Source of the DNA: Athripsodes cinereus
Taxonomy: Eukaryota; Arthropoda; Insecta; Trichoptera; Leptoceridae
Length of the DNA stretch: 64,000 bases
Assembly (NCBI GenBank): GCA_947579605.1
Contig: OX388328.1
Coordinates: 13,681,684-13,745,683, forward strand
Reading direction: 5' to 3'
Part shown: in pieces, positions 13,240 through 61,813 of the stretch
Layout: every line of letters starts with the position of its first letter
How positions within the stretch are numbered: position 1 is the stretch's first letter
Made by a program: the position numbers and the translations under genes
The notes under the pieces: model-generated
What the model saw: only the letters and a program-made list of their open reading frames with translations
What the model was told of the DNA's origin: nothing
The model's database searches: none

Positions 13240-13284
13240 TTCGCGTACTAGTATTCGGAGACCCTCGACTTCATCATCAGACGA
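13240..13284 (-). ncRNA. Hammerhead ribozyme-like motif, element H1
   Basis: Minus strand from 13284: stem I strand UCGU, core CUGAUGA (13280-13274), one extra U, stem II region (partly mispaired by mutation), GAA, the 8-nt palindrome UACUAGUA in the stem III position, C as the cleavage-site base, then GCGA pairing with UCGU (one G-U). The palindromic stem III implies a dimeric ribozyme. It differs from consensus at pair 15.1-16.1 (U-A instead of A-U) and in the extra U. Activity is unknown. Confidence 0.6.
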
Positions 13285-13349
13285 TTAGTAAAAAGTTTCT
13301 TTATGATGGAGTCGAGAGTCCCCCAGTACGCGAAGTTAATAAAAGTCAT

Positions 13350-13598
13350 TAATTGTGTCGGTGCACACGTAGTAGAATTCCATAATAATGCAATTTGAAA
13401 CAAGTGTTCCTTTCTACTATTGTTTTTTAATTCGCAGAGAGACGTCTTTCGACTTATAAGGTCATTATCAATCATCATCATAATTATAATCATATAAGGT
13501 CATATTATCAGATTGATAATGACCTTATAAGTCGAAAGACGTCTCTCTGCGAATTAAAAAACAATAGTAGAAAGGAACACTTGTTTCAAATTGCATTA
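13350..13598 (-). mobile_element. Ribozyme-type foldback element G, copy 2
   Basis: About 249 bp, flanked by the 14-bp direct repeat TTAATAAAAGTCAT (13336-13349 and 13599-13612). The left end on plus is taattgtgtcggtgcacacg, then 'tagtagaattcc'. Long arms pair across a central A/T-rich spacer. The right arm on plus carries CAGA, UUGAUAA, U, GACCUUAUAAGUC, GAA, the palindrome AGACGUCU, C, UCUG (13509-13549): a hammerhead layout with a 4-bp stem I. Core positions C3 and G8 are mutated (to U and A). Confidence 0.82.
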
Positions 13599-13989
13599 TT
13601 AATAAAAGTCATTTGGAAGTTAACTACATATTGTGTTTTTTTTTAATTTTTCTTGAAATGGACTTCCAACAAGTACCTTCGGTCAACAACATTAATATCT
13701 GTTTAATATCTACAATAATTTGTATTGTGTAATAATCAATTGTAACGGCAATGAATGTTTTTAGTAAAGACTGGAAATTCAAAAGGAAAATTAGCAATGT
13801 AACCAAGCAAATTTTGCGACCATTATAATTTCATATCAATCAGTTTTAAGCGAGTGTTAGTTCAATAATATACCTTCATTATTATCTCCCTCGAGTCTCT
13901 CATTGTAGATGCATTTATAAAAGTATCAACCTAGAGTCTTAACATTTCTAGAGTCTAACAGTCTATTCATGGAAAAAACTACAAAGTTT

Positions 13990-14170
13990 GCCATCTGTCC
14001 TGAATGCTTTAATTTTTTTTATGGCATGGAGAGAACAGTTTGCATGTATACAACATGTAGCTGATCTGCTAGCTGCCCTACTTGTGGGATATGGCGAAAT
14101 GGGTGGTATACTTACATATTAATGTCATGACACAAGCTTTTAGCTTATTATGAAAGGTGTGGTGCAGTGG
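13990..14170 (+). mobile_element. SINE family 3 fragment followed by a SINE family 1 fragment
   Basis: 13990-14107 matches family 3 (ctgtcctgaatgctttaatt, gcagctgatctgct-like, cttgtgggatatggcg). 14126-14165 matches the family 1 body (cacaagcttttagcttatta, gaaaggtgt). Both are truncated. Confidence 0.55.
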
Positions 14171-14262
14171 GTAAAGGTGTACATAGATTTTTTGCTAAAA
14201 AACATATATACTTGTAAAAAACCTATAACCTATAAATAAATTTTTATATTGAAACAACATTT

Positions 14263-14490
14263 TCACAACATATTTCTGAATGAACAGAAAAAGAAATATG
14301 TTTTTTTTTCATTTTTAATATTCTTGTATCGATAAGGATTTACTGGTAAACCCATTATTAAATAAAAGTAATGTAGAGTATAAAAAAGAATCTTCAATGA
14401 TAAAGATTCCATTGTCAAGGCGAAAACATGACTGAAAGGACCCAACGTAGATCCTTGCAGTATACCCAAAAAGGACACAGCTAAATAATA
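14263..14490 (-). pseudogene. RT core fragment (LINE)
   Basis: Minus strand frame contains AVSFLGILQGSTLGPFSHVF. 'G-x-x-Q-G-S-x-L-G-P' is the RT palm motif that precedes the YADD box in Jockey/CR1-type LINEs. The YADD itself is not seen. It lies next to a (TAATAA)n tract and another LINE 3' end. Confidence 0.55.
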
Positions 14491-14645
14491 ATAATAATAA
14501 TAATAATAAAAATCTTTATTGCACAAAAAAAACAAACATTAATAAAATATAAGCATTGTAGAACCAGACAAATAAATTTGTGCAATGGGCGAGTTTATCG
14601 CGGAAGCGCGATATCTTCCAACTAACCCATTTTTTAGCATTTTGC
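14491..14645 (-). mobile_element. LINE 3' UTR end, family L
   Basis: Minus strand: atgggttagttggaagatat, cgcgcttccgcgataaactc, gcccattgcacaaatttatt, ending 'gcaataaagatttttatt' then (ATT)n. Same family as 9060-9180, with a better preserved tail. Confidence 0.6.
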
Positions 14646-14999
14646 CACGTATTCTGCTTATTATTAAATACTAGAAGCACAATTACCATAAAATATATTT
14701 AAGAGTCTTCATAGATGTTAGGATTCTGGAAAAAGGTTGAAGAAAATTTCTCCAAAGACTTAGGAACATACTGTTCTCAATGCTAAGAAAATGGTCATAC
14801 AAATTAAACTTGTATTGCTGTGTGCACAATTTTCTTTCGGCTGTATATAAAAATAAACACATACAGTTATTCTCAACAAGTGGTCCGATTTCCAAGATGT
14901 AGTGGTAGTAGTAGTACCTACACCTAAGCGATTGTGGCGCTGGAATCTTATACGGGTTTCATACAAACATAGTGCGGTGGAAATGTGTACTAGATTGTT

Positions 15000-17430
15000 C
15001 CATTGCTAGTTTAGTCTGATTAACACTATCCGACATTTGGTCGTTGGTCGCGCCAAAGTCGCTGGCATTTTTCGCAATAACGGGATATGAAAAGTGGAAT
15101 GTGCATTACAAAAAACATTGCTTTAGAGTCATTGTAAGTTTAAATAAATAAATAATTAATTTGAAAAAATAATAATTGACAAATATTCTCACGTAGCAAC
15201 ATTAGAAAAAAGTTTCTATTTTCAAAAGTAACTAGAGCGCCGCGCGAATTCTGAATTTCACGATTCGAAATTTCAAAAATAGATTTTGTACGCATTTTTT
15301 ATTACAAAAGTATTAATTTTTTACAGTTTTTCAGTTTTTATCGTTTTTTATTGTTCTTTTTTTATAAAAAATCGAATGATCTATCGGAGTTGCCATATTG
15401 TTAAGTGTTGCCTGAGTTAAAAAATATTTTTTTTATTTCAGATTTATTTTTGTTTAATAAATAAGTAAATAAAAAGTGAAAAAAGGCGGTGAGTGTTGTG
15501 CTTTCAGACGCTTTTTTACATAACAAATTAATTGTGTGAAGTGCTAAGAATTTTTTTAATATATTTTTTACATATTGTACATTTTTACACTTTTCTCTTT
15601 CAACAGTTTCTCATAAAATCTAACAAAGATTTCCAATTTACAATGTGTAAATTTACATCAAAACATTTTTTATTTAATTGTATTTTTATTGTTTTTTTTT
15701 ATTATTATTATTCTAACACGGACGTTTATTTATTTAAACAATAATGTGGTGATTTTAGCTATATTTTTTTTTTCGTTTTTATAATTATATTTATTGAAGA
15801 CAAAACAAATGGATTGCAGTGAAGTGATAACTATTTTTATTGTATTTCTTACATGTTTGTATATATTTTTATTATTTTTCTTTGATTTTTCTGAAATTTA
15901 CGTATTTTTAAAAAAAATATCATTAAAACTATCTTGGCTCGAATCCTTCAGCCAACCTGTTCGACAATTTCTCATGTAACATATACTATCCTAGAATATT
16001 CTGGTATCGTCCAGAAATACTTTTGTGAATAGCTTTGATGAAATCTATTTATATTCGCATTTTTATTTATGAAATTATACAATATTAAAACAAAAACTAG
16101 GATTATATTATATCTCGTGAAATATCATTTTTTTTCGAAAAATTTAACTGGGACAAAAATATGGACAACCATTCAGAACTTACTTATTTTTTATCATACT
16201 ATCTTTATATTGAAATTTAACTAAAATTTTATATCTTACATTAAAAAAAAACAAGAAAAAGCAAAATCTGCAAACAAGAACCTTTTTTAATAAATTTATA
16301 TATTTTGAAAAAAGCACAAAAAAATTATGCGAACCAATTTTTAGTTTCCGAAAAAATCGAATATTTTTTTTAATCTTATGCATTTTTTAAATGTTAGCAT
16401 TTTTTTAACCGATAAATTTTTATTTTGCATAATACCAATTTTTTATTTGCAGAAAAATCGGAGTAATTATTTAATTTAGTGCATTTTTGAAACGATTATT
16501 ATTTTTCAATATTTATTTTTGTATCTGTTACGGTAACGGCGTTCGATTCATTTTTATATTTTTGTAACCAATGTGTGAAATATTTTATTATTTCGACACA
16601 ACATTCTCATAACATGAACAACGAATGATATCGTTCTGTGTGTTAAGAGAGAATGTACGAGTGTGTGTGTGTGAGTTTGTGAGTTTGTATGCGAGACGAA
16701 AATAGCCAAGTTATCGAGTTTCACCAGTGAGAAAAAATTCTTAGTTGTGAGTGTTATGCATGAATATTACGTGTGAACGAGGAAAAATACACAAAACTAA
16801 CAAAATGTTTAGTAAATGCTCTATGTTTAAATGTTCAAATGCTACTTATTCTTGATAGTATCGTCGTTACACGTATAAAATATTTTACCATTAATACTAT
16901 ACCGTCATAATATTATCTCGCTAGTGGAGTAGTCCGCGAACCACTATTTATTTATGTTCTATTCCCTCTAAAGCTTTTTCCTTTCTTGCTGTAGCAATAA
17001 GAAAAAAATAAGGCATTGATGGCGCATGCAATAATTTATCAGAATATATTATGACAAAATGACACACAAGTGCCAATCATATTATAATCAAACGTTTTAA
17101 AAGCTTTTTGGAATTTAAAAGTTGAAGAGAGCTTTCAAATAAGTTTTTATGAAAAAGACTGCGAAATTAATATTATTGTATATAAATTTTGTGAATCTCA
17201 AAAATCATTGTACGACATATTTTATTTATAATTTTTTTTTTAAATTACATCTCCAACGTATCTAAGAATTCTTACTTGTTGATATTATCTTATTTTGTTT
17301 TATGCAATTTTTGTATAAAACTTGTTGATTTTCACTAATTTTGTATGAAACTTATTACAATCCGCAACTTTTTGAATACAGTTAGTTAGTTTTCCAACTA
17401 TAAATCACAATTTCAAGTATAATAATTTAT
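15000..17430. other. No recognisable gene or repeat
   Basis: Very AT-rich sequence with many homopolymer runs. The longest ORFs here are 60-70 codons of low-complexity F/K/I/Y-rich peptide with no motif. No family seen elsewhere in the window is present. It may be host intronic or intergenic DNA. Confidence 0.5.
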
Positions 17431-17435
17431 TTATC

Positions 17436-17530
17436 TACCGATACCCTCACGCCATGTCCCAGGTGGGGTAAGCAGAGAGTACGGAACGCCATAGAGATCT
17501 ATCTTAACATACTTCTTTCGCTCATTTACT
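17436..17530 (-). pseudogene. RTE-A LINE 3' terminus
   Basis: Plus strand ataccctcacgccatgtccc, 'aggtggggtaagcagagag', 'cggaacgcc...agatctatc' is the reverse of the RTE-A end (RSIWRSVLSAYP...). Severely 5' truncated. Confidence 0.65.
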
Positions 17531-18213
17531 TAATGATAGTTTGACATTTATACCTATAAGATCAAGACCACATTGGATGCATCTTTAGGTCTTTATCATA
17601 AATCCCTGAATCTCGGGTTCTTTGTTATGAAAGGAAATAATGAAATATCTCTTTTAACGGAGAACGCGTTTGTTTAACAATAGCCATTTCATCCGAACAA
17701 TTTAAAATCTAAAATATCTAAAATCTGATGAACAAAAATCTTAAAGTGTTCAACTTAGATTACAGCAACAAAGTTTTAAAGAGCGTCACTAAGAGCGTAG
17801 AGACTTGGTTATTATTGAGAGAATTAAAATTAACCTGGGACTCCGTGATATTAATGGTGTAGGTATATTACAGTGTTGCAATAATGCACCACTTGTCCTT
17901 GGCATATGGCACACATTGATGCAAATAAATAGATGCACACTATGTCATACAATCATTAGGTACTTACAAACCTATATACTACCCTTAACTTAAATAAATA
18001 CTTATTTCGCTTTCAAGATACAAGCATGATATTGAATTTATTACATTGTTTAAATAAATTAATAGGTAATAGAAAATAATATATCACTGTTTACTTTCAC
18101 TTGATTATTCAATGAAGTGAAATTCAATCATGGTAATCCCAAGTGAAATTAAATAATGGGAATCTCAAGTGAAATTCATTCAAGGCAGTCTCAAATGAAA
18201 TTAAATCATGATT

Positions 18214-18392
18214 AATGGAAGCGAGTTTTCTCATTATGATTTTAAATTATCACTTTTAATTTTAATTTGGTGACGGGTTTCGACACGCTTTTGAAAATGC
18301 TCGTCAATGACACTAACGTGTCGAAACCGGTCGCAAAATTAAAAATGATAATTTAAAAACATTGTAAGAAAACTCGGTTCCATTAATCATGT
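18214..18392. mobile_element. Ribozyme-type foldback element, family H4
   Basis: Inverted arms of ~75 bp: the left starts tcatgattaatggaagcgag and the right ends ctcggttccattaatcatg. The right arm on plus has the perfect hairpin GACAC-UAAC-GUGUC (18309-18322), GAA (18323-18325), the palindrome ACCGGU and C (18332). The left arm carries the mirrored GUC-GAA-ACCCGU-C. The CUGAUGA box is degenerate (UCAAUGA). Same layout as families G, H and I but with different sequence. Confidence 0.65.
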
Positions 18393-18644
18393 CCCGAAAT
18401 TATCACATTGTAAATGCCGCTAATATTACCTAACAATAGAAATTAAATCAAGCCAATCTCAAGTGAAATTAAATGAAACCAATCTCAAGTGAATTTTAAC
18501 ATACAATGAAAGTGAAAAACGGTATTGGGTGTTTGTATTAATTCAAACAATCTAAATGAATTTTCACTGTGTAATTGCCTCTTCAAAAATAGAAAAATAA
18601 TTTAAAAAAATCAAACCATTCGAACGTGCTGTGTAACACCTGTC

Positions 18645-18835: not shown

Positions 18836-18849
18836 CAACTTCACAAACT

Positions 18850-19065: not shown

Positions 19066-19094
19066 TAAGGATTTCTATTTTTTTGAAAATAAAT

Positions 19095-20293: not shown

Positions 20294-20760
20294 ACAAAAT
20301 TAATCAGAAAAATACATTGAGTTTGTTTATTAGATGCACCCTTCTGTGAAAATCGTATGCGTGCATTTCGGCCAGTACACATATTGTTGCATTAGAATAT
20401 AATCATTTATAGTATTCTGTGTGTATGGGTGAGATGCGTGGGAGTAAACACATCTCTCACACACACACAGAACGCACAACACACAATATAGTCACCCACT
20501 TGCATCACGTTTGAGCTAGTGATATCATACTTTTATGTATGTAAAATGATAGTATACGTTATATATTGCCATTATGAAATTAGAACACAATGAAATAAAT
20601 TTCGTAAACTTATATCTGAAGCTGCTGAAAAGTTATTGTTTTCGAAACAGTTTTCGAAATCCAATAAAAAAATAAAATATTCTAATGCGTTCGTGAGTAA
20701 AATTTTTATTTATCGACAGACGGTTCTTGGTGGTTGTTCATTATTTAATGGCCTGGCTAG

Positions 20761-21121: not shown

Positions 21122-21333
21122 AATAAATAAAAGAAATGTTTGTTTATTTGACGAGACAGACGTCATTCGTCTTGTTAAAGACGAAATTAAGTAAATTAAA
21201 TTAAATTAAATTAAATTAATTTGTTAAAGTCGACGAAAGACGTCTCTCTTATCAAATAAATAAATAGTAGAATAAAATATTTGTTTTATTTATTTCGCTA
21301 TAGAATTCTACTACCTAAACACCGACACAGTAA
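21122..21333 (-). mobile_element. Ribozyme-type foldback element G, copy 4
   Basis: Flanked by a perfect 13-bp direct repeat ATCTTTGACGTGA (21109-21121 and 21334-21346). The minus-strand 3' terminus is tagaattcta-type, then 'accgacacagta' reversed at 21305-21333. The arms carry the GAA-AGACGUCU-C signature (plus strand gacgaaagacgtctctc near 21231-21247). The centre is a (TTAAA)n expansion. It is inserted 16 bp after the hAT-like element. Confidence 0.8.
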
Positions 21334-22737: not shown

Positions 22738-22952
22738 CAGATAGCAGGATACGAACGTCAATTAATCATCAACCTTCAATCATTCGGTGACGATTCGGAG
22801 CATTCTCCGAAGAAATATTCGTATGAATGCCTTCGTTTCCCGTCCCAATACGGGTTATGAAGGCATTCATTTTTGAATATTTCTTCAGGGAGAGTGCTTC
22901 GAATCGTCACCGAATGATTGAAGATTGATGGACGTTCGCATCCTGCTATCTG
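22738..22952. mobile_element. Foldback MITE, family F
   Basis: A 215-bp element with ~95-bp inverted arms: left CAGATAGCAGGATACGAACG, right CGTTCGCATCCTGCTATCTG. The arms continue through tcaatcattcggtgacgatt and its complement to a short loop (gtttcccgtcccaatacggg). It has no ORF and no evident target duplication. Single copy in the window. Confidence 0.75.
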
Positions 22953-28589: not shown

Positions 28590-28950
28590 TATTAATTGAT
28601 TTTTATTTTTTTGTAAAATTGTGTAAAATTTAATTGAAAGAAGTCAAAAAGGTGTCCTAATGTCTACAAATTGGCTAGAAGCTGCAGGGTTACTCTTGAC
28701 AAAACTAAACACGATCTTAATCTAGTCTTGATCTTGATCATACAACGCACGAAGGGACTATGGACAAAAACACCGCGCTACCGCTAACGCGCGATCGGTT
28801 TGAGTGTATTTTTGGCCAATATCGTGCGTCGTATGATCAAGATCAAGACTAGATTAAGATCGTGTTTAGTTTTGTCAAGAGTAGCCCTGCTGGACTTAAT
28901 GATCATTTTTGGTGTTCATGGACAACGTTCACCAATCCCGTGATGATATA
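28590..28950 (+). repeat. Dispersed repeat family D copy split by MITE E
   Basis: 5' part tgtgtaaaatttaattgaaa, 'cctaatgtctacaaattggc'. The 3' part resumes after the MITE with ttaatgatcatttttggtgt, 'tcatggac'. The junction shows a CTG duplication. Confidence 0.65.
28685..28889. mobile_element. Foldback MITE, family E
   Basis: A 205-bp element with ~68-bp near-perfect inverted arms: CAGGGTTACTCTTGACAAAA and TTTTGTCAAGAGTAGCCCTG at the ends, gtcttgatcttgatcatac and its complement inside. Flanked by CTG on both sides (28682-28684 and 28890-28892), consistent with a 3-bp target duplication. No ORF. Half copies are at 1.74 and 32.27 kb. Confidence 0.8.
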
Positions 28951-31654: not shown

Positions 31655-32125
31655 CCTGACAAATATCAAGGTTCGTAGTCTCACATTTCGGTCACATCCT
31701 GCGAGGTGATAAATATCGACTTCTGCAGTTTATAACAGAAGGCAAGATTGAGGGACGTCGTGGGGTAGGAAGGAGGCAGATGTCGTGGCTGCGGAATATA
31801 CGGCAATGGACCGGAATAACACGGATGGAAGGCCTGAGTCAACAACACACTTTCGTCTTACGTTCCCGCTCCGTTAGCGTTCGGGTGCAGACGATGTTGC
31901 AAGCAAGTGTCAATTTCGTTGCTAAGATACACAATAGTTACGAAAATTAACACTTTGGCGCACCATCGTCTGCACCCGAACGCTAGCGGAGCGGGAACGT
32001 GAGACGAAAGTGTGTTGTTGACTCAGGCCTCTGGTCCGCACAGCACGAGACAGAGAGGCATTCTCCAGAGTGATCGCCAACGTCGGGGGACCTGATACGG
32101 CTCTGATAGAAAAAGAAGAAATATT
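31655..32125 (+). pseudogene. Non-LTR RT C-terminal remnant split by MITE B1
   Basis: Frame before the MITE: GHILRGDKYRLLQFITEGKI, EGRRGVGRRQMSWLRNIRQW, TGITRMEGL. After the MITE: LVRTARDREAFSRVIANVGG. Same family as 1-250 (SWLRNIREWTG ... VIANVGG) and interrupted at the equivalent residue. Confidence 0.75.
31831..32030. mobile_element. Foldback MITE, family B copy 1
   Basis: A 200-bp element with ends GGCCTGAGTCAACAACACAC and GTGTGTTGTTGACTCAGGCC. The arms run ~70 bp inward; the central part gtgtcaatttcgttgctaag is shared with B2 (38.75 kb). Non-coding. Inserted in LINE coding sequence. Confidence 0.85.
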
Positions 32126-38270: not shown

Positions 38271-38745
38271 AAATGTGTCCCGATGCTTACGAATCAGCTA
38301 AGGCTGGTTTAAGTACTCTTTATCCATAGTACTCTCTCCGATAGCTCTACATCCAATATCGAGCCTTGGCCTCTCGCAACATTCCCCTCCATCCTCCGAT
38401 GTCTTCAGCCGTCTAATTTCAATTTCCCATCTGGAGAAGCTGTGTCGCATCCTTTCTACCTTCTCAGTCTGGATCTTACCACTTTTCTCCTTCCACCTGG
38501 GTTTCCAGTCATAATTCGACATTTTCTGTCCATTTCCACCCCATCTCAATCTGAGAAGTCTCATATGGGTTGAGATATAAGAAGCTCATATGGGTTGAGA
38601 TATTATATATCATACAGTTCGGATGCGTCACTGTTCCTCTTCTTTCTTCTCAAGATCTTTGTTTTGAATACATATATCTAACATTTCGTCATCCTTGCCG
38701 TCAGTATAAGAGCCTCATGCCAATACAATTCTTACAAGAGTACTG

Positions 38746-38951
38746 AGGCCTGAGTCAATAACACATTTTCACGTTACGTTTTCGTTCCGTTAACGTTCGA
38801 GTAGGTATAGACGAAGTTGCAAACAAGTGTCAATTTCGTTGCTAAGATACACAATAGTTACGAAAATTAACACTTTGGCGTAACATCGTCTACATTTGAA
38901 CGCTAACGGAACGAAAACGTAACGTGAAAATGTGTTATTGACTCAGGCCTC
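38746..38951. mobile_element. Foldback MITE, family B copy 2
   Basis: A 206-bp element. Ends AGGCCTGAGTCAATAACACA and TGTGTTATTGACTCAGGCCT; arms continue ttttcacgttacgttttcgt and its complement. The interior gtgtcaatttcgttgctaag is identical to B1. The flanks (ctg/cag) extend the palindrome, so no target duplication can be assigned. Confidence 0.85.
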
Positions 38952-39406
38952 AGCAGGTAATGTTATGTTGGTTCTCCTGTGGATGCTACGTGACTCAAAG
39001 ACTGGCAACAAAGTTTGTGATTTAAATCAATGATAACTACCACGTCAAGAGAAACCCCTTTGTCAATCACTACAGACTTTACTCTATATAATTTTTACCT
39101 ATATGTATAAATTTGGCACATAGCCCAATAAACAATAAAATAAAGATAAAAAAATGATATTTATTATAAAGTTTCTACCTTATCTTACTGTCAATCGCTT
39201 TGTATCTTTTGAAGGGTAGACAGAGAGAAGATCATGATATGATAATATTTATTTTAATGATGTTATATTAATTTTTATATAACAGTAGTTATACACGGCT
39301 TTGCTCGAAGAAGAAACGTCTAATTGACAAATCAACAACTACTACTACTACTATTGTACAATGACAGCAGTAGAATGGAAATAAAAATGGAGTAGCTTGT
39401 AGACCT

Positions 39407-39861
39407 GGGCCCCTAGTCAAAACACATTTAAGCGTTACGTTTTCGTTCAAACAAGACGAGGTTGCGAGAACGCATCAATTTTCGTAGCTAAAATACACAA
39501 GTAGCTACGAAAATTGACGCGTTCTCGCAACGTCGTCAACGTTTGAACGGAAACGTTCAAACGTTGACGACGATTGCAAAATACGACAAAATTCATAGAC
39601 CTCACACATCTCTCGGATTGCAGTATTTTATGATCTTGAAGAGTACCTACATATATCCAATTATGGCTTGCAAAGCTCGCATCTCTGTGGTTCATAGGAT
39701 ACTTTTGGTTTTGGTTGTGTTTACCTTTATTTCTATGCCATAGGTGAGTATTGGGCGCACACATGTCTTGTAGATGCAGACCTTACTGACTGTTCTCATG
39801 TCTTTAATCCTCCAGATATCAACTTTTGAACAGCCTACTACGGCTGCAGCTTTATCTACCT
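39407..39861. repeat. Tandem block unit 1: MITE A2 plus RTE-C RT segment
   Basis: A ~455-bp unit: MITE A with a truncated right arm (39407-~39570), then reversed RT coding (39575-39861). Repeated as unit 2 at 39862-40323 with a few differences; a complete MITE A follows at 40324. The right arm stops at acgtttgaacg and continues into a second inverted cgttcaaacgttgacgacg piece. Confidence 0.85.
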
Positions 39862-40323
39862 GGGCCCCTAGTCAAAACACATTTAAGCGTTACGTTTTCG
39901 TTTCGTTTTCGTTCAAACAAGACGAGGTTGCGAGAACGCATCAATTTTCGTAGCTAAAATACACAAGTAGCTACGAAAATTGACGCGTTCTCGCAACGTC
40001 GTCAACGTTTGAACGAAAACGTTCAAACGTTGACGACGATTGCAAAATACGACAAAATTCATAGACCTCACACATCTCTCGGATTGCAGTATTTAATGGT
40101 CTTGTAGGGTACCTACATCCAATTATGGCTTGCAAAGCTCGCATCTCTGTGGTTCATAGGATACTTTTGGTTTTGGTTGTGTTTACCTTTATTTCTATGC
40201 CATAGGTGAGTATTGGGCGCACACATGTCTTGTAGATGCAGACCTTACTGACTGTTCTCATGTCTTTAATCCTCCAGATATCAACTTTTGAACAGCCTAC
40301 TACGGCTGCAGCTTTATCTACCT
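39862..40323. repeat. Tandem block unit 2: MITE A3 plus RTE-C RT segment
   Basis: A ~462-bp near-copy of unit 1. Its MITE has one extra copy of the cgttttcgttt segment. The small divergence between the units points to a recent duplication. Confidence 0.85.
40035..40323 (-). pseudogene. RTE-C LINE, RT thumb segment
   Basis: Minus strand: QVDKAAAVVGCSKVDIWRIK, DMRTVSKVCIYKTCVRPILT, YGIEIKVNTTKTKSIL, a stop, TTEMRALQAIIGC, then NTAIREMCEV. The Y-K-T-x-V-R-P-I-L-T-Y-G ... E-M-R-x-L-x-x-I-x-G series follows the palm domain in RTE/CR1-like RTs. It continues the RT of 40514-40830 across MITE A4. Duplicated at 39575-39861. Confidence 0.75.
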
Positions 40324-40513
40324 GGGCCCCTAGTCAAAACACATTTAAGCGTTACGTTTTCGTTCAAACAAGACGAGGTTGCGAGAGCGCATCAATTTTC
40401 GTAGCTAAAATACACAAGAAGCTACGAAAATTGACACGTTCTCGCAACGTCGTCAACGTTTGAACGAAAACGTAACGAAAACGTAACGCTTAAATGTGTT
40501 TTGACTAGGCCTA
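40324..40513. mobile_element. Foldback MITE, family A, complete copy 4
   Basis: About 190 bp with both ends: GGGCCCCTAGTCAAAACACA and TGTGTTTTGACTAGGCC. Long arms include aagcgttacgttttcgttca and complement. Inserted in RTE-C coding sequence between the palm and thumb segments. Confidence 0.85.
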
Positions 40514-40835
40514 CTGTGGTCGTATTTCTTTGGGAAGATCATAAGAACTTAATAGCTCACTGCTGAGGTAACTTAATCGCGTCACTTGTTCGACTTGCTG
40601 GTCACCTTTGCTCAGTTCACATTCAAGTAGTGATTCTTTCGAGATTGTCATCCATTTTATTTTGGGCACTGAAATAATCGTATTGTACTTAGAGCAAGCT
40701 TCGTTGAATTTGGTGAGCATTCTCTATAGGTCATCTTTACTGTCGGTTATAATTATTGTTGCGTCGTCAGCATAGCAGATAATGCCCACTAAAAATCCAT
40801 GGTGTATCCCAGATTCAGAGATGATGCGTATAGTT
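40514..40835 (-). pseudogene. RTE-C LINE, RT palm with YADD catalytic box
   Basis: Minus strand: SGIHHGFLVGIICYADDATI, IITDSKDD, a stop, RMLTKFNEACSKYNTIISVP, KIKWMTISKESL, VEQVTRLSYLSS. Y-A-D-D (near 40770) is the RT active-site motif, followed by the conserved T/SVxKTKxM-like and Y-L-G-like positions (here YLS). At least one stop codon and MITE A4 inactivate it. This is the only catalytic RT box found in the window. Confidence 0.8.
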
Positions 40836-44362: not shown

Positions 44363-45114
44363 ATTATATTTTCAAAAAAGTTAAAGATTCTTAATAAAAC
44401 TCCAATTTGTCGTGCGAGGCCGGGGAGGACCGCTAGTCTTATATAAATTACGAACCAGATGATGAGAGCGGACAAAGCTCTTGAATGCCGGCTCTCGATT
44501 AATAGAGTCAATGTTTAAGCACTAAATTAACGTTTTTTTTATTTTTATTAATCGCCTATACTTACATTATGTAATGTTTTAGAATAAAAAAAAAAACATA
44601 TTTTCTGCATTATATTCATTGGTCAATCATAACTTAACTTGTGTTTATTTTATTGTGACATTTAATTTCCGTTCTGTAGGTAGACCAGCAGCTATTTATA
44701 ATAAGCTTTTTTCAGTACATTGGTCATATATTTATTTATTTATTTGTTACTGTGCGCTGAATTCCTATAAAATATTGACACAAAAATACACTCGGATTAA
44801 AATTATACACTCGGAATAAAAACAAATCGCAAAAGCGCAATTTTCAACTTGAAGAAAACTTACTCGAAACTTTTGAATACAAAATCTGAACAAGCGATTT
44901 CTCTGTACTCCCACAAGTGGGGTAATAATCGGACAAACTTCAAAATTCATATCTAAGTTTGAGACTAGCTCGATATGTGTGAATTGTCTATGCATATTAA
45001 ACTGCATGTAATAAGCACGCAGATAATTCTCTACCTACCAATAAAAAATAAGACCCCTGGGATTGGTGGCATGTCTCGTCGCTGAATCGTACCTAAGTAT
45101 ATCTTTATTGGCTT

Positions 45115-54360: not shown

Positions 54361-54438
54361 ATGACCTGAATTTCAATTTGAGTGAATTTATAGAGCGTAG
54401 TAATAAACAGCTTGCAACTGTGCAAATTGTTAATAAAG
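54361..54438 (+). CDS. Candidate host internal coding exon (78 bp, phase 1-1)
   Basis: A 3' splice site, tattatttgtattgcag, ends at 54360. A 5' splice site, AAAG|GTAAAG, begins at 54439. Of the three frames between them only one is open, the one that enters with a G from the previous exon: DDLNFNLSEFIERSNKQLAT then VQIVNK. The length is a multiple of three and both ends are phase 1, as in symmetric internal exons. The peptide is hydrophilic and not TE-like; I do not recognise the protein. No partner exon was found, so chance remains possible. Confidence 0.42.
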
Positions 54439-54608
54439 GTAAAGTTGATATTTTCAACCGACGGTACTTGGTGGCAATTCATGTTGAATTAATTATAAAT
54501 AAAATGTATTCTATTTTTTCGGTGGTAACCTTATGAAAGTTCATTTTTATTAATATTAAAATGATAGAGTTAAACACTGTTACTTTCACTTGTATAAATT
54601 TTTATTTT

Positions 54609-54645
54609 GGCAGAGGCCTTTCGAACTTAGTCCATCATCAGTGCC
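54609..54645 (-). ncRNA. Hammerhead ribozyme-like motif, element I
   Basis: Minus strand from 54645: stem I GGCA, core CUGAUGA (54641-54635), one extra U, stem II GGAC-UAA-GUUC, GAA (54622-54620), the palindrome AGGCCU (54619-54614) forming A15.1...U16.1, C (54613) as cleavage-site base, then UGCC, which pairs perfectly with GGCA. All invariant core positions are present. The 6-nt palindromic stem III would work best as a dimer. The only departure is the extra U before stem II, seen in all related families here. Confidence 0.7.
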
Positions 54646-54680: not shown

Positions 54681-54776
54681 ACTTTGGCGCGAATACTACA
54701 TATTTTTCAGGTCGCGCGTATGAAAATTTATTTTTTTACGTTTAAAACCCAGTATTTTTCGCGCGTGCAGGTGACA

Positions 54777-54998
54777 ATGGAATCAAACGATCTCAAAACA
54801 GTGAAGGCTTTCTTCTCACAATAAATGAAGGATCTTGAGGCGAAGATCGCGAGACAGCGGCAACAACTAAAAGATATGCATGAGACAGTGACGTGTCAAC
54901 AACGCCCCGATGATTTGATGTCTGACTTTAAAGCCTTTAGAGGCGAATTATTTAAGAGGGTCAAGGCTCTGGAACAGAAGATGATGATGCGGAACTAA
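54777..54998 (+). pseudogene. Small coiled-coil ORF remnant (unassigned)
   Basis: Frame starting ATG: MESNDLKTVKAFFSQ, TAA (54822-54824), then MKDLEAKIARQRQQLKDMHE, TVTCQQRPDDLMSDFKAFRG, ELFKRVKALEQKMMMRN, TAA at 54996-54998. It is rich in heptad-like L/I/K/E spacing, and could be the N-terminal coiled coil of a LINE ORF1 or a gag-like protein. Not recognised. GC is higher than in the surroundings. Confidence 0.4.
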
Positions 54999-55149: not shown

Positions 55150-55250
55150 TCTTATTTCACTTTTTACTAATCGCCTGATGATGGAGACGAGAGTCTCCGA
55201 ATACTAGTGAGCGAAGTTAATAAAAGTCATTTGGAAGTTAACTACATGGG
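55150..55250 (+). mobile_element. Ribozyme-type element H, copy 2 (single arm)
   Basis: Plus strand: UCGC, CUGAUGA (55175-55181), U, perfect stem II GGAGAC-GAGA-GUCUCC, GAA (55199-55201), UACUAGUG, A, GCGA (55211-55214), which pairs with UCGC. Then the tail agttaataaaagtcatttgg, aagttaactacat. It represents the empty site for the G2 insertion at 13.35 kb. It has a hammerhead layout, though the stem III closing pair is U-G. Confidence 0.75.
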
Positions 55251-56454: not shown

Positions 56455-56835
56455 TATTTTGTGCATTATAGAATATAATGCAGATGTTAAGATGGATGTG
56501 CAGGGTCACAAAGCTTGATAAGATCAATTTGTACATCAATGGGAATCTGGATATGCGGAATATCTCAGATAAAATACGAGAGAGCAGATTGTGATGGTAG
56601 GGCCATGTGGCCAGGAGACCACCTGAGTATGTAGGCAATAAAGCACAATGAATCGAAGCTACCGGCAAGAGGCCAAGAGGGAGGCCAAAGAGCAGTAGTG
56701 AGACAAGACATGCAGAACTGTGATGTTTCCCATGAGGATGCACTTGACAGAACCAAGTTGCGAAATAAAACAAGAGCAGAAGAAGACCCCACCACCATGT
56801 GGGACTAATAAGTGGCCAAGGAGAAGAAGAAAAAT
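56455..56835 (+). pseudogene. LINE RT C-terminal fragment, another family
   Basis: Frame MQMLRWMCRVTKLDKINLYI, NGNLDMRNISDKIRESRL, stop, W, stop, GHVARRPPEYV, then KRPRGRPK in another frame and HEDALDRTKLRNKTRAEEDP, TTMWD, stop. M-R-x-L-R-W-M-x-x-V-T-x-x-D-K-I ... R-P-R-G-R-P-K ... D-P-T-T-M-W-D is a very common LINE C-terminus in arthropods. Frameshifted; tail rich in GAA. Confidence 0.75.
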
Positions 56836-56984
56836 AAAATTTAATGTAAATAATAGGTTTGCAATTCGTAAAAAGCTAGCATTACCCTTCTGTACCTAGT
56901 GTTGTGGAATTCTCAAGAAATAATTTAGTAGTAGAAGTAGAGAATATTCGGAGATTTTTTTTTTTTTTATTTAACAGTATAATA

Positions 56985-57250
56985 ATAATAAATACTTTAT
57001 TCAATCAATCAATAACAATGTACAAATGTTGAGACAATTTATCACCAATATGGCTACAATTAATTATGGAAACAAAAAAATGTTAGGTACCTACATAGAA
57101 AAAAAGTGCTAATAACTGATGAAAAATCTTGATGTTTAACACCCCAATTGCCCATATTTAAGTTGCAGTAAAAAAATTGCAGGTACGTACATGGAAAAAA
57201 GTGTTAATAACCTCTGATATGGGCTTTAATCAGCCCCACAAATTTTTGGA
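56985..57250 (-). mobile_element. LINE 3' UTR end (unassigned)
   Basis: Minus strand ends attgttattgattgattgaa, taaagtatttattattatta, a typical LINE 3' terminus with a (TTA)n tail. No coding part. Confidence 0.4.
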
Positions 57251-57311
57251 TCAAACAGGTCGGCTGCGAAGTGTACTGGGCGAAAGGTCATAATACAACT
57301 AAGGAAAATTA

Positions 57312-57395
57312 TGGAGAGAAATTTCTCTTCCATCAGAGGAGAAATTCTCGGAGAAATTTCTCGTTCTCGAGAAATTTCTTTGGAGAATTTTCTCT
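57312..57395. repeat. Cluster of GAGAAATTTCTC palindromes (heat-shock-element-like)
   Basis: GAAnnTTC units at 57318-57325, 57353-57360 and 57371-57378 (GAAATTTC), and 57385-57392 (GAATTTTC), with an imperfect GAAATTC at 57341. GAAnnTTC is the dimer form of the heat shock factor site. No promoter or gene is next to it, so chance or a foldback remnant is equally possible. Confidence 0.5.
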
Positions 57396-57724
57396 TCTCA
57401 CATCACTATCTGTACCATATTGCGTGCACTGTTGATTCAACTAGTGTGTCATCGTCTTGTTTGTCAGATTAGTGCGAGATTGAAAAGTAGATGATTGCTC
57501 ATACTTCGTTCGGTAGGTACATGGTGAAGCCAAATGCAGACTTTTTGAAACATGGGAATTAAAACGAATGTTTTTTTTTAATATATCTTCTAAGTATTTT
57601 TAAACAAATAGTATTTAGATTGTGCAATTGTGTAATATAGATATTGCATCATTGAAATCTAATAGTTTGCTATGCTTTCGAATTGGTGTCTAAGTGTCTA
57701 AGTAACTGAAGTTTTTTTAATACA

Positions 57725-57905
57725 ATTTTTTTTTTAAATCGGGGTGGGTGGACCACCCTTAACATTAAGGGGTATGAAAAATAGATGTTGGCCTATTCTC
57801 AGACCCACCCGATAAGCACACAAAATTTCATCAAAATCGGTCCAGTCGTTTCGGAGGAGTATGATAACAAACACCGTGACACGAGAATTTTATATATTAG
57901 ATTTA
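57725..57905 (+). repeat. Dispersed LINE/SINE 3' end, family N
   Basis: atcggggtgggtggaccacc, 'cttaacattaaggggtatga', 'aaaatttcatcaaaatcggt', 'ccagtcgtttcggaggagta', 'acacgagaattttatatatt'. From general knowledge this is a common arthropod interspersed repeat 3' end. 57.9-58.44 kb shows nothing recognised. Confidence 0.65.
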
Positions 57906-58454
57906 ATTTTTGTATCAATCACGACTTAATGCAAGTTAATCATGTTTGTCGGTAAGTTATGGATATACCGATCATCCCCATTTTATATACCAATAAAAAG
58001 CCGACAAAAAGTACAATTATACCTTCTTTTTCTTTTAGAGTCTTGTCCAATATCCCTGACATTATCAGAGATATTCTAACTGTCCTTTCCAATGCGAAAC
58101 AGTGAAACCTCCACGATTTTCATTCTCGTCAACTCTCGGATATTTTGGAACCTAGAGAGACACTATCTTTCATTCTCTCCAAACCTTTCAAACTTTCTAA
58201 CTGGAGAATCGCGTATTATTTATATGTATATGTGTGTGTGGATGTATGTGTGGGTACGTAAGCGTTTGTGTTACGTGTCATATGATTGAATGATAAAACA
58301 GAGTAAGGAAAATAACCTATGTATCTAAAGTAAACTAATGATAAAGTGCTGAGACAAAGTAAGATAAAAAAAACTGACTCAGTGTACCTTGGTACGGGCT
58401 CATGCCCAGTTAGGTAGATTTTATGACATTTTATGTTTTAAATACTGTATCTAT

Positions 58455-59145
58455 CTATCTATCTATCTATTCCCTCACGCCGTATCCGAAATGGGGTAAG
58501 CAGAGAGAACAGAACGCCAAGTAGATCTGTCCTTACATACTTCTTTCGCCTCCTCCACAGTCATACGATTTCTCATGCACGCACGTCGATTTCACTTACT
58601 CAAAACACGGCCGTCCTTGAGAATTTGATCTACATGTTCAAGCCTGTAGTTCTCGGACGCCCGCGCTTCCTCACACCCCTCCTTTCAGCCAAGTATATTC
58701 TCTTTGTCATTCTTTCCTATTCCATTAGTTCCACACGACCAAACCATCTCAATTTATTTACACGCATTCTATCCACAACACTCCTCTTGCATCCACTCAT
58801 TCTTCTAATATCCTCATTCCTCACTCTATCACGCAACGTTTTCCCAACCATCCTCCTCAGCAATCTCATCTACACAGCATTTATTCCACTTTCGTTCTTC
58901 TTCAACCATGTCCACGTTTCGCTTGCATACATAAGTGTCGGTACCAGGATGGTATTGTGCACTAGCAATTTTGCCATGTTCGACACATTGTCATTGCTGA
59001 CAATGGGTCGAAGTGCACCGTTAATCCTAGAACCGGGCACTTTTCTTCTTTCAATATCCTTGTCGCATCCTCCATCCCTCGCAAACAAACTTCCTAAATA
59101 TATTCGTCCACTTTCATTTTCATTTTCATTCACAAACATTCATTT
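58455..59145 (-). pseudogene. RTE-A LINE, long copy
   Basis: Minus strand from ~59100: RIYLGSLFARDGGCDKDIER, RKVPGSRINGALRPIVSNDN, VSNMAKLLVHNTILVPTLMY, ASETWTWLKKNESGINAV, then shifted frames through the WFGHVERM-like region to the terminus (plus strand ccctcacgccgtatccgaaa), with a (TAGA)n tail at 58449-58471. Nearly colinear with 42.66-43.44 kb. Confidence 0.82.
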
Positions 59146-59574
59146 TCAACCTTTATACGTATTTATACTGTTAAATAAATTATTGAATAAATAAATAAAT
59201 AAATTTACCTCACAAGACATGACTTAAACATGTTTTACAGAATCTTACGGAGAAAAAAGTAATACGGAGCTAAAGCTCTAGCTAAAGCTAGTGGTCATTA
59301 TATGACTGAGTTATATTTAAGTTTATAATATATGTAGATCCTTGGCAAAAAATGCTGTATTTATGATTTATGGTGAATAATAAAACATTTTTATGACCGA
59401 TGCTTGGTAAATTGCTGGCAATAATTACGGTTTGAACAAAATATCTTGTTTTTCAAATCATTACATAAATTTTCTGAGTAGTATTACTATTTTATTTATT
59501 CATTCTTCACTGTACAATGACTGTGAACAGTGCATAAAGAAGCACATTCATAATATTGAATGATGATGATGATT

Positions 59575-59800
59575 TTGGATGTTTTTTTTGACGCTGTTTA
59601 ACAGTCCCTAGACTGTCTCAAGGGCGCCAGTGAAGAGTTCAGTTTTAAATTTGCTTCTGAAGCTGGTTACGGTCTGGCTATCTCTCAATGGCACCGGTAG
59701 GCGATTCCACATAACCGGTCCAACAACACCAAAGGCTCTCTCATAGAAATTAGATTTAGGAAGTTAGGGCTCAGTAAGTCTGAATACAATCATTTTACAC
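59575..59800 (-). pseudogene. L2-like LINE RT C-terminal fragment
   Basis: Minus strand SNFYERAFGVVGPVMWNRLP, VPLRDSQTVTSFRSKFKTEL, FTGALETV, stop at ~59613. W-N-x-L-P...S-F-x-S-K-x-K-T-x-L-F is the L2 C-terminus. The three L2-like copies in the window end in G-A-L-E-x-V/M-type tails. Confidence 0.72.
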
Positions 59801-59875
59801 ATGGTGGCTTTCACAATCTCTTCCAACTAACCCAGATATTTATAAAGTGTAAAATAATTTTATCTGCGTATATTT

Positions 59876-60025
59876 TTAACCTATGACAACGATATCAGAG
59901 CGCAAGGAATGTCGTGGGAAGAGGTGACGCAATTGGCACAGAGACGCTCTGAATGGAGGAGGCTGGTTTCTGCCCTGTGCTCGCGAGAGGAGCGTTGAGG
60001 GCGATGATGATGATGATGATATTTT
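59876..60025 (+). pseudogene. CR1-like LINE 3' terminus
   Basis: DIRAQGMSWEEVTQLAQRRS, EWRRLVSALCSREER, stop, then (GAT)n tail at ~60003-60020. Nearly identical to the 3' end at 618-745 (minus). 5' truncated to ~140 bp. Confidence 0.75.
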
Positions 60026-60256
60026 TAAGCGGTTTCTAGCTTTTGAATATGTTTGCTTCTCTCGACTAGAGGGACATCGAAGGTGTGTAGTCAAAAGATT
60101 CCATACGTAGAGGTTATGGTAGTTCGGTGATTTGAAGTCAACACACTTCACGTAAAGATATACATATGTTTTTTTTTTTCAATTTTAACGTTTTAATCTT
60201 GAGTGACTTTGCTTCTATGCCTCTAAATTATACTTAGTGTTGAAATTCATATTTCC

Positions 60257-60750
60257 TTGCCGTGGAGGTGAAGTGATCCAAGCCACACTTTTTTGAAAAA
60301 TGAGTTAAGTATGCAGTTTTGTTCAGAAAACCACGGAGAACATAGTGGTGAAGAAAAATAAGTGATTTGATATTCCTAAAGGGTATTTTCGGAAAGTGTT
60401 TACACATCATTTCAAGTGTGTGTTGGAGCATTTCACAAACGCAGATAGGAATAAATAGTTCAATTAAATTATAGAAGTGAAAAGATCCAAGCCGCATAGC
60501 GCGTAACTTTCCAACAACTTTCCTACAGGTGGATCTTTCTCAGCTACAAATATAAAAATTCTTTATTATTTTGTTATTTATATTAGTGGAATATGTGATC
60601 AGGAATATTGTGTAAAATATTTAGCGAAATCTATGCAAAAATAACTTAGTTTTAGTCAAATTAGTATTGGCGGATGCGACAGCATAACTTCATCACCCTT
60701 TTTCTCGAAATGCCTGTCTTGTGGGTAAGATCACTTCACATCCACGGCAA
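60257..60750. mobile_element. Non-coding TIR element, family K
   Basis: The 22-bp ends TTGCCGTGGAGGTGAAGTGA(TC) and (GA)TCACTTCACATCCACGGCAA are inverse with one mismatch. Element length is 494 bp. The interior repeats gtgatccaagccaca and aaagatccaagccgca. The longest ORF (87 codons) has no motif. No target duplication is evident. Superfamily unknown. Confidence 0.6.
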
Positions 60751-61179
60751 CGATTTTTACCTCACTTAAAGAATATGCCATGATGGTTCAAACAGAGAAC
60801 TTTATGAAATTACTAACACAAAAAAATGTTTTTATCTAGGTATTTAGAATATTAATTAACATTGCTTTTTATTGCTTAACTGTGTTTGGACACACCGCGG
60901 AGTAGTTAAAAACAATCTCAACCAAACCCAGTTAATCAAAAAAATAATAAGTCAATATTCTAAAGATTTGATGCTGACTTGTCAAACAAGCAGCAGATTT
61001 TTTTTTTACTTAAGTTTTTCAACGCAATTTAGATGGCAGTTTTTTGTACATATAGCTTGACCCATTCGAGATCTGAAATGTGAGATCCCAAAAAGTGGTT
61101 GCTTTTATGGTTTATATTAAATGTCTCTTGATAAGTGGACAGTGACAGTGAGAATAGCGATATTGGTGAAAGTTTTACC

Positions 61180-61310
61180 ATGGACACCAAAATTGATCAC
61201 TTAAGCAAGCCTAGAGCAAGTTCCTAAACGTTGCGATGCTTTTGTCACATCTTCTAATTAGATTCTGCACAATGTTACATTGTGTAAACATGATTCTCCA
61301 ATCGAGATAT
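61180..61310 (-). repeat. Dispersed repeat family D copy
   Basis: Plus strand ttgatcacttaagcaagcct, 'agagcaagttcctaaacgtt', 'cttctaattagattctgcac', 'aatgttacattgtgtaaaca'. Reverse of the family unit. Confidence 0.65.
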
Positions 61311-61375
61311 CTAAACATTTTTATACCATATTTCATAAAGGTTAATCCTGTGATTCATCTACAGTAAAACTTTCA

Positions 61376-61586
61376 TTTATTAATTGTGTCGGTGCACACG
61401 TAGTAGAATTCCATAATTATGTAACTGAAACAAGTGTTTCTTTCTACTATAGATTATTGATTCCGAGAGAGACGTCTTTCCACTTATTAGGTCATTATCA
61501 ATCTATAGATTGTGATCTATAGAGAAAGACGTCTCTCTCGGAATCAATAATCTATAGTAGAAAGAAACACTTGTTTCAATTACATA
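61376..61586 (-). mobile_element. Ribozyme-type foldback element G, copy 5
   Basis: A 211-bp element flanked by a perfect 13-bp direct repeat AGTAAAACTTTCA (61363-61375 and 61587-61599). The left end on plus is ttattaattgtgtcggtgca, cacgtagtagaattcc. Arms of ~85 bp pair with few mismatches. Both arms carry GAA-AGACGUCU-C (for example 61524-61535). The left arm (minus) retains the degenerate core UUGAUAA with a stem II region. The second arm lacks the terminal ~35 bp, so the dimer is asymmetric. Confidence 0.82.
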
Positions 61587-61599
61587 AGTAAAACTTTCA

Positions 61600-61813
61600 A
61601 TAATTTTTAAATTGAAACACAATATATAGTTATTCCACTATTGACTTTATTTATTTTTGCGAGCCGGCTTTCAAGAGCTTCCGCTCTCATCGTAAAGAAC
61701 CTTTACTTTTGCCTGACGTTGAGAGCGGAAGCTCTTGAAAGCCGGCTCGCAAAAATAAATAAAGTCAATAGTGGAATAACTATACATTGTGTTTCATTTT
61801 AAAAATTATTAAT
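61600..61813. mobile_element. Ribozyme-type foldback element H3
   Basis: Inverted arms. The inner 63 bp (from tagttattccactattgact to the ttccgctctca end, and its complement) match perfectly; the outer 30 bp match with few changes. The right arm (plus) holds UUUUGC, CUGACGU (61713-61719), U, stem II GAGAGC-GGAA-GCUCUU, GAA, the palindrome AGCCGGCU (61740-61747), C, GCAAAA pairing with UUUUGC. An AATAAATAAAG tail follows. The core base A9 is U here. It touches element G5. Confidence 0.78.
61707..61754 (+). ncRNA. Hammerhead ribozyme-like motif, element H3
   Basis: 6-bp stem I (UUUUGC with GCAAAA), 6-bp stem II, GAA, 8-nt palindromic stem III, C at the cleavage position. The CUGANGA box reads CUGACGU, so one core base differs and activity is doubtful in this copy. 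Confidence 0.55.

What the first reader, a model, noticed from the sequence alone, without database searches (positions are those of the whole stretch)
13240..61754. Several unrelated short families share one hammerhead-ribozyme-like architecture with a palindromic stem III
Families G, H1/H2, H3, H4 and I differ in sequence. All read: stem I strand, CUGAUGA (or variant), one U, stem II hairpin, GAA, a 6-8-nt palindrome, a cleavage-site base, and in the best copies the stem I partner. The palindromes differ (AGACGUCU, UACUAGUA, AGCCGGCU, ACCGGU, AGGCCU) but sit at the same place. Stem I strands covary: CAGA/UCUG, UCGC/GCGA, UUUUGC/GCAAAA, GGCA/UGCC. Covariation across unrelated sequences is hard to get by chance. 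In known biology, dimeric type I hammerheads with short stem III occur in Penelope-like element terminal repeats and animal retrozymes. I infer a group of small non-autonomous ribozyme retroelements. The shared extra U before stem II departs from the classical core.
Basis: partly seen in the sequence, partly recalled or inferred. Interest (0 to 1): 0.88.

Follow-up and report, generated by a model that had tools for sequence, protein, structure and literature searches.

The report
Penelope retroelement ends with hammerhead ribozymes
The window holds remains of Penelope-type jumping genes whose RNA appears to begin with a small self-cutting RNA motif (a hammerhead ribozyme); the kind is known, but here it forms large families of hairpin-shaped insertions that record how such elements may copy themselves.

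Summary
The hammerhead architecture is real. A descriptor scan finds 3 motifs with at most one core mismatch in the window; 600 shuffles gave 8 in total, never 3 in one. They are best read not as unrelated small retroelements but as 5' ends (pseudo-LTRs) of Penelope-like elements (PLEs). In the same genome five PLE families carry a hammerhead just downstream of a GIY-YIG endonuclease match, with the same extra U and a 6-nt palindrome; for one family a reverse transcriptase domain was found too. Stems I and II and the tertiary 3-8 pair covary. The aligned copies of H1 (30) and H4 (29) have largely fixed 3' ends and an optional tail resembling the PLE reading-frame start; H4 flanks show target-site duplications. 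H4 copies are fold-backs whose centre differs in all 20 that could be read, so they seem to arise anew at insertion. Rfam models detect none of these motifs, not even the endonuclease-linked ones tested. Family I is unconfirmed; no cleavage was tested; PLE proteins were not found attached to the window families. Verdict: known kind, new families; the fold-back record is the interesting part.

The parts
55159..55227 (+). H1b hammerhead: ACUUUU..AAAAGU outer stem I, UCGC/GCGA, core CUGAUGA+U, stem II GGAGAC/GUCUCC, GAA, UACUAGUG, A
   Evidence: 46 matches in own genome from 40 scored
55127..55134 (+). TATAAATA box, 32 nt before the A that begins stem I of H1b
   Evidence: 20 of the 22 H1 loci that have a TATAAATA nearby show 32 nt
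13228..13296 (-). H1a hammerhead, stem II decayed, inside a fold-back
61701..61765 (+). H4 hammerhead, UUUUGC/GCAAAA, core CUGACGU (A9 changed) + U, AGCCGGCU, C
   Evidence: family aligned
61600..61854 (+). H4 fold-back with tail on the right (ATG of tail at 61814)
   Evidence: TAAAACTTTCA at 61589-61599 and 61855-61865
54609..54645 (-). H3 hammerhead: GGCA/UGCC, core CUGAUGA+U, GGAC-UAA-GUUC, GAA, AGGCCU, C; agrees with the core rules
   Evidence: joint best hit of model R1 in the window, E 0.5
54430..54608 (-). H3 sequence downstream of the motif, with tail reading MNCHQVPSVENI
13509..13549 (+). G hammerhead-like motif: CAGA/UCUG, core UUGAUAA+U, AGACGUCU, C
13351..13598 (.). G2 fold-back inserted in H1a between two copies of AATGACTTTTATTAA
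61376..61586 (.). G1 fold-back, 13-bp duplication AGTAAAACTTTCA
21122..21333 (.). G3, 13-bp duplication ATCTTTGACGTGA
6736..6832 (.). G4, 10-bp duplication ATAAAAGAAT
18207..18391 (.). Family I fold-back; GAA-ACCGGU-C present, core not recognised (unconfirmed)
44446..44505 (+). Degenerate H4-like fragment (AUGAUGA, GAAUGCCGGCUC)
   Evidence: by eye only

Best explanation
The motifs are type I hammerhead ribozymes with a short palindromic stem III, at the 5' end of RNAs of several families of Penelope-like retroelements. Shown: five families in this genome have the motif downstream of a GIY-YIG endonuclease match, and one of them also has a reverse transcriptase domain upstream; the window families share the plan, the extra U, covarying stems and ORF-start-like tails. 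Inferred: transcription starts at the first base of stem I (TATA box 32 nt upstream in H1); reverse transcription starts at two nearby sites, about 107-116 and 152-161 nt from that base in the copies measured; cDNAs primed from both strands of the cut target meet head to head, giving fold-backs flanked by target duplications of about 9-15 bp. The ribozyme would cleave tandem or read-through PLE RNA, perhaps as a dimer through the palindrome; that step is the least supported. Inserted copies contain the ribozyme through to its 5' strand, so their templates were probably uncleaved.
For: Chance. RT, endonuclease and hammerhead in order in L062; strict motif 83-97 nt after the endonuclease match in 16 of 30 loci (L061 is the locus of L016, and L085/L086 look like duplicates), recognisable by eye in 11 more, elsewhere in 1, absent in 2. 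9 of 9 further loci examined show PLE3-5 motifs. Covariation: stem I 31 of 32 cells, permutation p about 1e-4; 97.1% of cells paired against 81.4% shuffled, 7 of 12 pairs with changes on both sides, 3-8 pair C-G in 7 and U-A in 2 rows. H4: 20 of 20 readable centres distinct; flanks share >=9 nt in 18 of 25 loci against 2.7% of 483 mismatched pairs. H1: 28 of 30 loci keep the core. Tails and ORF starts. TATA distance and start-site distances.
Against: No hammerhead match in Rfam in the window, the genome, or 11 fetched loci. Model R1, built only from endonuclease-linked motifs, puts H3 joint first in the window but at E 0.5; G and H4 at about E 7; H1 is not listed; in 30 H1/H4 loci it finds the motif in 2 of 19 H4 loci and 0 of 11 H1 loci at E<=1. 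H1 has U15.1-A16.1 (or U-G in H1b), a weak variant. Only 9 of 29 H4 copies keep the whole 48-nt motif. Fold-back copies prefer the long hairpin. No PLE RT or endonuclease was found attached to H1, H3, H4 or G themselves. Some 'by eye' families bias the covariation counts. The count of further pair types is no higher than in shuffles (233 of 500 reach it).
Confidence: 0.8

Rival explanations
1. Animal retrozymes: small tandem non-autonomous elements passing through circular RNA, using PLE enzymes only in trans.
For: Type I hammerheads, short length, low GC, variable TSDs fit the description of metazoan retrozymes (PMC7229834, passages); no PLE protein is attached to H1, H3, H4 or G here.
Against: No tandem monomers in the copies examined; copies end at fixed start sites with PLE-like tails, are inverted head to head, and are not circular permutations.
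Confidence: 0.12
2. Fold-back MITEs (DNA transposons); the hammerhead resemblance comes from the palindromic arms.
For: Long inverted repeats of about 200 bp.
Against: Centres differ in 20 of 20 readable H4 copies, duplications vary in length, tails are one-sided; many H1 copies have no inverted arm; the same motif stands outside fold-backs beside PLE endonuclease matches.
Confidence: 0.04
3. PLE 5' ends as above, but the motif is a structural relic or a protein-binding or priming signal that no longer cleaves.
For: Inserted copies carry the uncleaved motif; in the Anolis PLE ribozyme mutants still insert in vitro and the RNA cleaves only with protein added (PMC11167929); H1 carries the weaker U15.1-A16.1 pair.
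Against: H4, H3, G and PLE1-5 keep the core, A15.1...U16.1 and a non-G cleavage base, with compensatory 3-8 swaps in PLE3, PLE5 and G.
Confidence: 0.25
4. Fold-backs come from self-priming on an antisense RNA, not from priming on both target strands.
For: Proposed by the authors for Adineta Penelopes with palindromes at inverted junctions (PMC3846280, passages).
Against: The two arms end at different start sites (one with, one without tail) in most H4 copies, and the Anolis protein extends both strands (PMC11167929); neither excludes self-priming.
Confidence: 0.35

Closest known systems
Minimal type I hammerheads in pseudo-LTRs of Penelope-like elements (Cervera and de la Pena 2014; Lunse, Weinberg and Breaker 2017; neither paper is held; known here through PMC7761336 passages and a reference list)
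   Same: Type I, weak stem III, linked to PLEs, proposed to act as dimers
   Different: Here stem III is a 6-8 nt palindrome and one extra U precedes stem II in all nine families read; whether those papers show the extra U I could not check
PAc, Anolis Penelope/Poseidon element (PMC11167929, parts 1-2 of 4 read)
   Same: Hammerhead at the pLTR-ORF junction with a start codon at stem II (which implies an AUG across A9, an extra U and G10.1), two nearby internal RT start sites, both target strands extended
   Different: By my reading the AUG frame closes early in H1, H3, PLE1, PLE2 and PLE3; the likely ORF start lies about 100 nt downstream
Adineta vaga Penelopes (PMC3846280, passages read)
   Same: Head-to-head inverted pLTRs, 31-bp tail, 8-10 bp TSDs, TATA box about 20 bp before an initiator, palindromes at pLTR 5' ends
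   Different: Single or few copies with ORF; here many short copies that consist of the 5' end alone
Metazoan retrozymes (PMC7229834: abstract, part 1 of Results, passages read)
   Same: Type I hammerhead, non-autonomous size range, larger TSDs
   Different: Tandem repeats and circular RNA there; neither seen here (RNA not testable)
Natural hammerhead core variants (PMC3088659: passages and section 8 read)
   Same: U3-A8 covariation; U15.1-A16.1 (active but weak); palindromic stem III with dimer model in repeat-type hammerheads
   Different: The section read names insertions after A6 and in GAAA, not before stem II; an extra base in a viroid core (De la Pena and Flores 2001) I know from a reference-list title, its position from recall

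Membership tests
Hammerhead ribozyme, type I | Core CUGANGA...GAA with A15.1-U16.1 and non-G cleavage base | tested here: met
   H3 in the window, H4 majority, PLE1, 2, 4 meet it; PLE3, PLE5, G with U3-A8; H1 has U15.1-A16.1; window H4 has A9 changed
Hammerhead ribozyme, type I | Covarying stems I and II | tested here: met
   (partly chosen by eye or by a descriptor that demands stem I)
Hammerhead ribozyme, type I | Match to a curated covariance model (Rfam) | tested here: not met
   models also miss the endonuclease-linked motifs
Hammerhead ribozyme, type I | Self-cleavage | not testable with these tools
   needs RNA
Penelope-like element | RT plus GIY-YIG endonuclease, for PLE1 | tested here: met
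   L062: RVT_1 41.5 bits, GIY-YIG 23.6 bits (cut-offs 29.6, 22.6), in two frames-open pieces
Penelope-like element | RT plus GIY-YIG endonuclease attached to H1, H3, H4 or G | tested here: inconclusive
   Not seen in the 1.5-kb flanks of L001-L059 in ORFs >=120 aa other than the nested fragment in L016 (top three ORFs per locus printed); no full-length element was looked for
Penelope-like element | pLTR with TATA/initiator, tail, inverted copies, variable TSDs | tested here: met
   (TSDs measured for H4 and four G copies; not established for H1)
Metazoan retrozyme | Tandem copies, circular RNA | tested here: inconclusive
   No tandem arrangement in the 59 H1/H4 loci as fetched; RNA not testable
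Fold-back MITE | Same inherited palindrome and fixed TSD length in all copies | tested here: not met
   20 of 20 readable H4 centres differ; TSD length varies

The most novel reading that the evidence does not exclude
In this lineage the common product of PLE insertion is a fold-back: two cDNAs of the same RNA 5' end, primed from both target strands at two fixed start sites about 33-45 nt apart, meet head to head at or near the RNA 5' end, which is the first base of the ribozyme. The many copies would be a natural record of two-sided priming from uncleaved RNA, so ribozyme cleavage is not needed before insertion.
Probability: 0.5. Interest if true: 0.6.

Novelty: new member of a known kind. 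Interest (0 to 1): 0.45.

Why it matters
The role of hammerheads in Penelope-like elements is described as still a mystery (PMC7761336, passage). A genome with about 1000-3400 first-look candidates per family searched, recognisable start sites, tails, duplications and fold-back centres makes the question countable: which RNA ends are copied, whether cleaved RNA is ever a template, and how the two strands are primed. The covarying 3-8 pair and the constant extra U suggest that the ribozyme plan was kept while the sequences diverged.

Tried and rejected
Rfam as arbiter: no hits, but none either at the endonuclease-linked motifs, so not decisive. The shared sequence beside H1a, H3 and H4 as the C-terminus of an ORF: the frames were closed upstream; it reads as an ORF start on the other strand. 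The extra U as the PLE start codon, as in Anolis: the AUG across A9-U10-G10.1 is there in the families read, but by my own reading the frame closes within about 3 to 16 codons in H1, H3, PLE1, PLE2 and PLE3, and after 27 codons in H4, so I do not claim it. H1a and H4 as one ancestral fold-back (their centres look alike in the window): dropped after the H4 copies showed different centres. A six-sequence MAFFT alignment across families failed and was not used. Family I and the G count: genome searches did not complete. One pattern each in viral contigs and genome contigs found nothing. The host was not identified. Papers: 'hammerhead ribozyme' with Lepidoptera gave 8 listings, none on this subject by title; hammerhead + Penelope + Lepidoptera gave 0; this says little, since the key PLE papers are not held.

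Selection effects: H1b, H3, H4 and the PLE1 motifs were found with a descriptor that demands stem I; PLE2-5 and G were read by eye, so the figures depend on my alignment. In one search the TSD test covers 25 of 29 H4 loci and the centre count 20 of 29 (my patterns did not find the needed landmarks in the rest). One search was given 30 of the 59 H1/H4 loci (11 H1, 19 H4). One search was given 11 of 99 loci. The 8 pieces were chosen among the listed matches.
Full report
What was checked. Stem I strand, CUGANGA, one extra U, stem II hairpin, GAA, palindrome, non-G base and stem I partner occur with the core starting at +55175 (H1b), +61713 (H4, A9 changed), -54641 (H3) and -13280 (H1a, stem II decayed). 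A G copy reads CAGA-UUGAUAA-U-GACCUUAUAAGUC-GAA-AGACGUCU-C-UCUG at 13509-13549(+). A descriptor scan of both strands gives 2 perfect-core hits and 3 with at most one core mismatch. In 600 dinucleotide shuffles there were 0 and 8 such hits in total, and never 3 in one shuffle.

Structure around the motifs. Self-BLAST shows H4, G and H1a in inverted repeats of about 180-220 bp (H1a by reading). G2 sits inside H1a between two copies of AATGACTTTTATTAA; G1, G3 and G4 have duplications of 13, 13 and 10 bp; H4 has TAAAACTTTCA on both sides. The tails read as short coding starts: MNFHQESSVDKL (H4), MDFQQVPSVNNI (H1a), MNCHQVPSVENI (H3), MEFYYVCTDTI (three G copies; G3 starts IEFYYLNTDTV).

Genome copies of H1. 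46 matches from 40 scored of 1986 first-look candidates. In the 30 aligned loci, 28 keep CTGATGATG and 15 fit the full motif pattern. The 3' end is mostly fixed near TTTTATCTT; in 5 of 30 it runs on into the tail. Upstream, copies are truncated at many points, and 11 of 30 have an inverted arm match of at least 20 nt ahead of them. A TATAAATA box lies within 60 nt upstream in 22 of 30 loci, at 32 nt from the A that begins stem I in 20 of these.

Genome copies of H4. 80 matches from 40 scored of 973 candidates. In 29 aligned loci the left arm starts near AATAATTTTTAAAATG without a tail and the right arm ends with the tail in most; L053 (left) and L058 (right) clearly differ, and only 11 have the exact majority tail end. 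The right copy reaches CTTTACTTTTGC in 17 of 29; the left copy is cut back to varying degrees. All 20 centres that could be extracted differ. Left and right flanks share a word of at least 9 nt in 18 of 25 loci, against 2.7% of 483 mismatched pairs. 19 of 29 keep CTGACGATG and 9 the whole 48-nt motif. So these fold-backs appear to be made anew at insertion from one RNA region. In one H4 copy the two ends lie 107 and 152 nt from the RNA 5' base, in one H1 copy 116 and at least 161 nt. H3 shows matches on both strands at neighbouring places for many of its copies, with ends near query positions 172 and 217 (74 matches, 40 scored of 1256), but its loci could not be cut out.

Link to Penelope-like elements. 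One H1 locus (L016) is interrupted by a fragment with a GIY-YIG domain (23.6 bits, cut-off 22.6), followed by CCGCC-CUUAUGA-U-GCCAAUAUAUUGGU-GAA-AGCGCU-A-GGCG; its inverted left copy has CUGAUGA. That endonuclease has 151 matches from 150 scored of 3430 candidates. Of the 30 loci fetched, 16 have a strict motif 83-97 nt after the endonuclease match (one is the L016 locus again, and L085/L086 look like duplicates); L080 has one 1025 nt away; by eye 7 more have a decayed or truncated copy (L066, L067, L070, L072, L073, L074, L084), 4 have a second family UUGCC-CUGAAGA-U-GCCGCAAGGC-GAA-AGCGCU-C-GGCAA or a decayed form of it (L077, L079, L082, L088), and L083 and L089 have none that I could read. 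In L062 an RVT_1 domain (41.5 bits), GIY-YIG (23.6 bits) and the hammerhead follow one another; L066 and L067 also have RVT_1 (56.2 and 55.0 bits) upstream of the endonuclease; the second family's GIY-YIG in L082 is below the cut-off (18.7 bits). Nine further loci with more distant endonuclease matches give three more families, PLE3-5. After these hammerheads, frames start MLFHNVN, MNFHNVN, MNFHSVN and MNFQSVN (my translation), similar to the H tails. A part of L091 is withheld and was not used.

Covariation. In a manual table of eight families (H1, H3, H4, PLE1-5), stem I pairs in 31 of 32 cells (permuted mean 17.5, p about 1e-4) and stem II in 31 of 31 (p about 5e-5). On nine endonuclease-linked sequences 97.1% of cells pair (shuffled mean 81.4%, slid versions 24-39%), 7 of 12 pairs have changes on both sides (3 of 500 shuffles reach that), and the tertiary 3-8 pair is C-G in 7 and U-A in 2; the number of further pair types is not above shuffles. 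G adds a third U-A family, and its stem II occurs as GAC/GUC and GUC/GAC. U3-A8 and U15.1-A16.1 are known natural variants, the latter less active (PMC3088659, section 8).

Results against. Rfam has no hammerhead match in the window, in the genome search with RF00163, or in the 11 loci tested. A covariance model from the endonuclease-linked motifs alone puts H3 first in the window, but at E 0.5 and tied with an unlike site; the G copy (E 7.2) and H4 (E 7.3) are among 16 hits at E<=10, where about 10 are expected by chance, and H1 is not listed. In 30 H1/H4 loci its six hits at E<=1 include the motif of 2 of 19 H4 loci and 0 of 11 H1 loci; the strongest lie in the flanks. Folding of eight representatives shows both stems in six by my reading, not in H3 or PLE2; the H1b region folds no better than shuffles (z -0.95). 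The complete H4 fold-back strongly prefers the long hairpin (-145.8 kcal/mol).

Mechanism. Shown: the parts, mostly fixed ends, duplications, changing centres, and the RT, endonuclease, hammerhead order in PLE1. Inferred: transcription from the base of stem I, two RT start sites, priming from both target strands, head-to-head joining. The Anolis PLE protein starts internally at two nearby sites and extends both strands, and its ribozyme is not needed for insertion in vitro (PMC11167929, parts 1-2 of 4). Adineta Penelopes have inverted pLTRs, tails and TSDs, and the authors favoured self-priming on antisense RNA (PMC3846280, passages); my data do not separate the two routes. What the ribozyme is for, perhaps trimming tandem transcripts as a dimer, stays open.

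Conclusion. The finding is real as an architecture. Its best explanation is PLE 5' ends: a known kind, with families not named in anything I could search. The extra U is a constant feature of the nine families read. The fold-back insertion record is the most informative new part.

Noticed in passing
31830-32030, 38743-38953, 39403-40515: Another fold-back family with ends like GGCCTGAGTCAA/GGCCCCTAGTCAAAACAC, partly inside a 462-bp tandem array; looks like a palindromic DNA-transposon derivative; no hammerhead seen by eye.
   Followed up: partly
22738-22952 and 28684-28890: Two further fold-backs of about 210 bp without a recognisable hammerhead motif.
   Followed up: no
54787-54997: Open stretch between H3 and H1b that reads like a coiled-coil N-terminus (RQRQQLKDMHE...VKALEQKMMM); origin unknown.
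   Followed up: no
59880-60020 and 617-757: 97.9% identical inverted copies ending in GATGAT repeats, SINE-like.
   Followed up: no
20690-20760: A lone H-type tail (MNNHQEPSVDK on the minus strand) without its ribozyme part.
   Followed up: partly
L091-L093, L097, L098: PLE families whose hammerhead core has U3-A8 instead of C3-G8, in two PLE families and in G: a natural set for studying this swap.
   Followed up: partly
61363-61375, 61587-61599, 61855-61865: G1 and H4 used the same target sequence one after the other, leaving three copies of it.
   Followed up: yes
L028:83-132 and 2934-2980: Strong hits of the PLE model (30.4 and 45.9 bits) in the flanks of an H1 copy, i.e. other PLE hammerheads nearby.
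   Followed up: no
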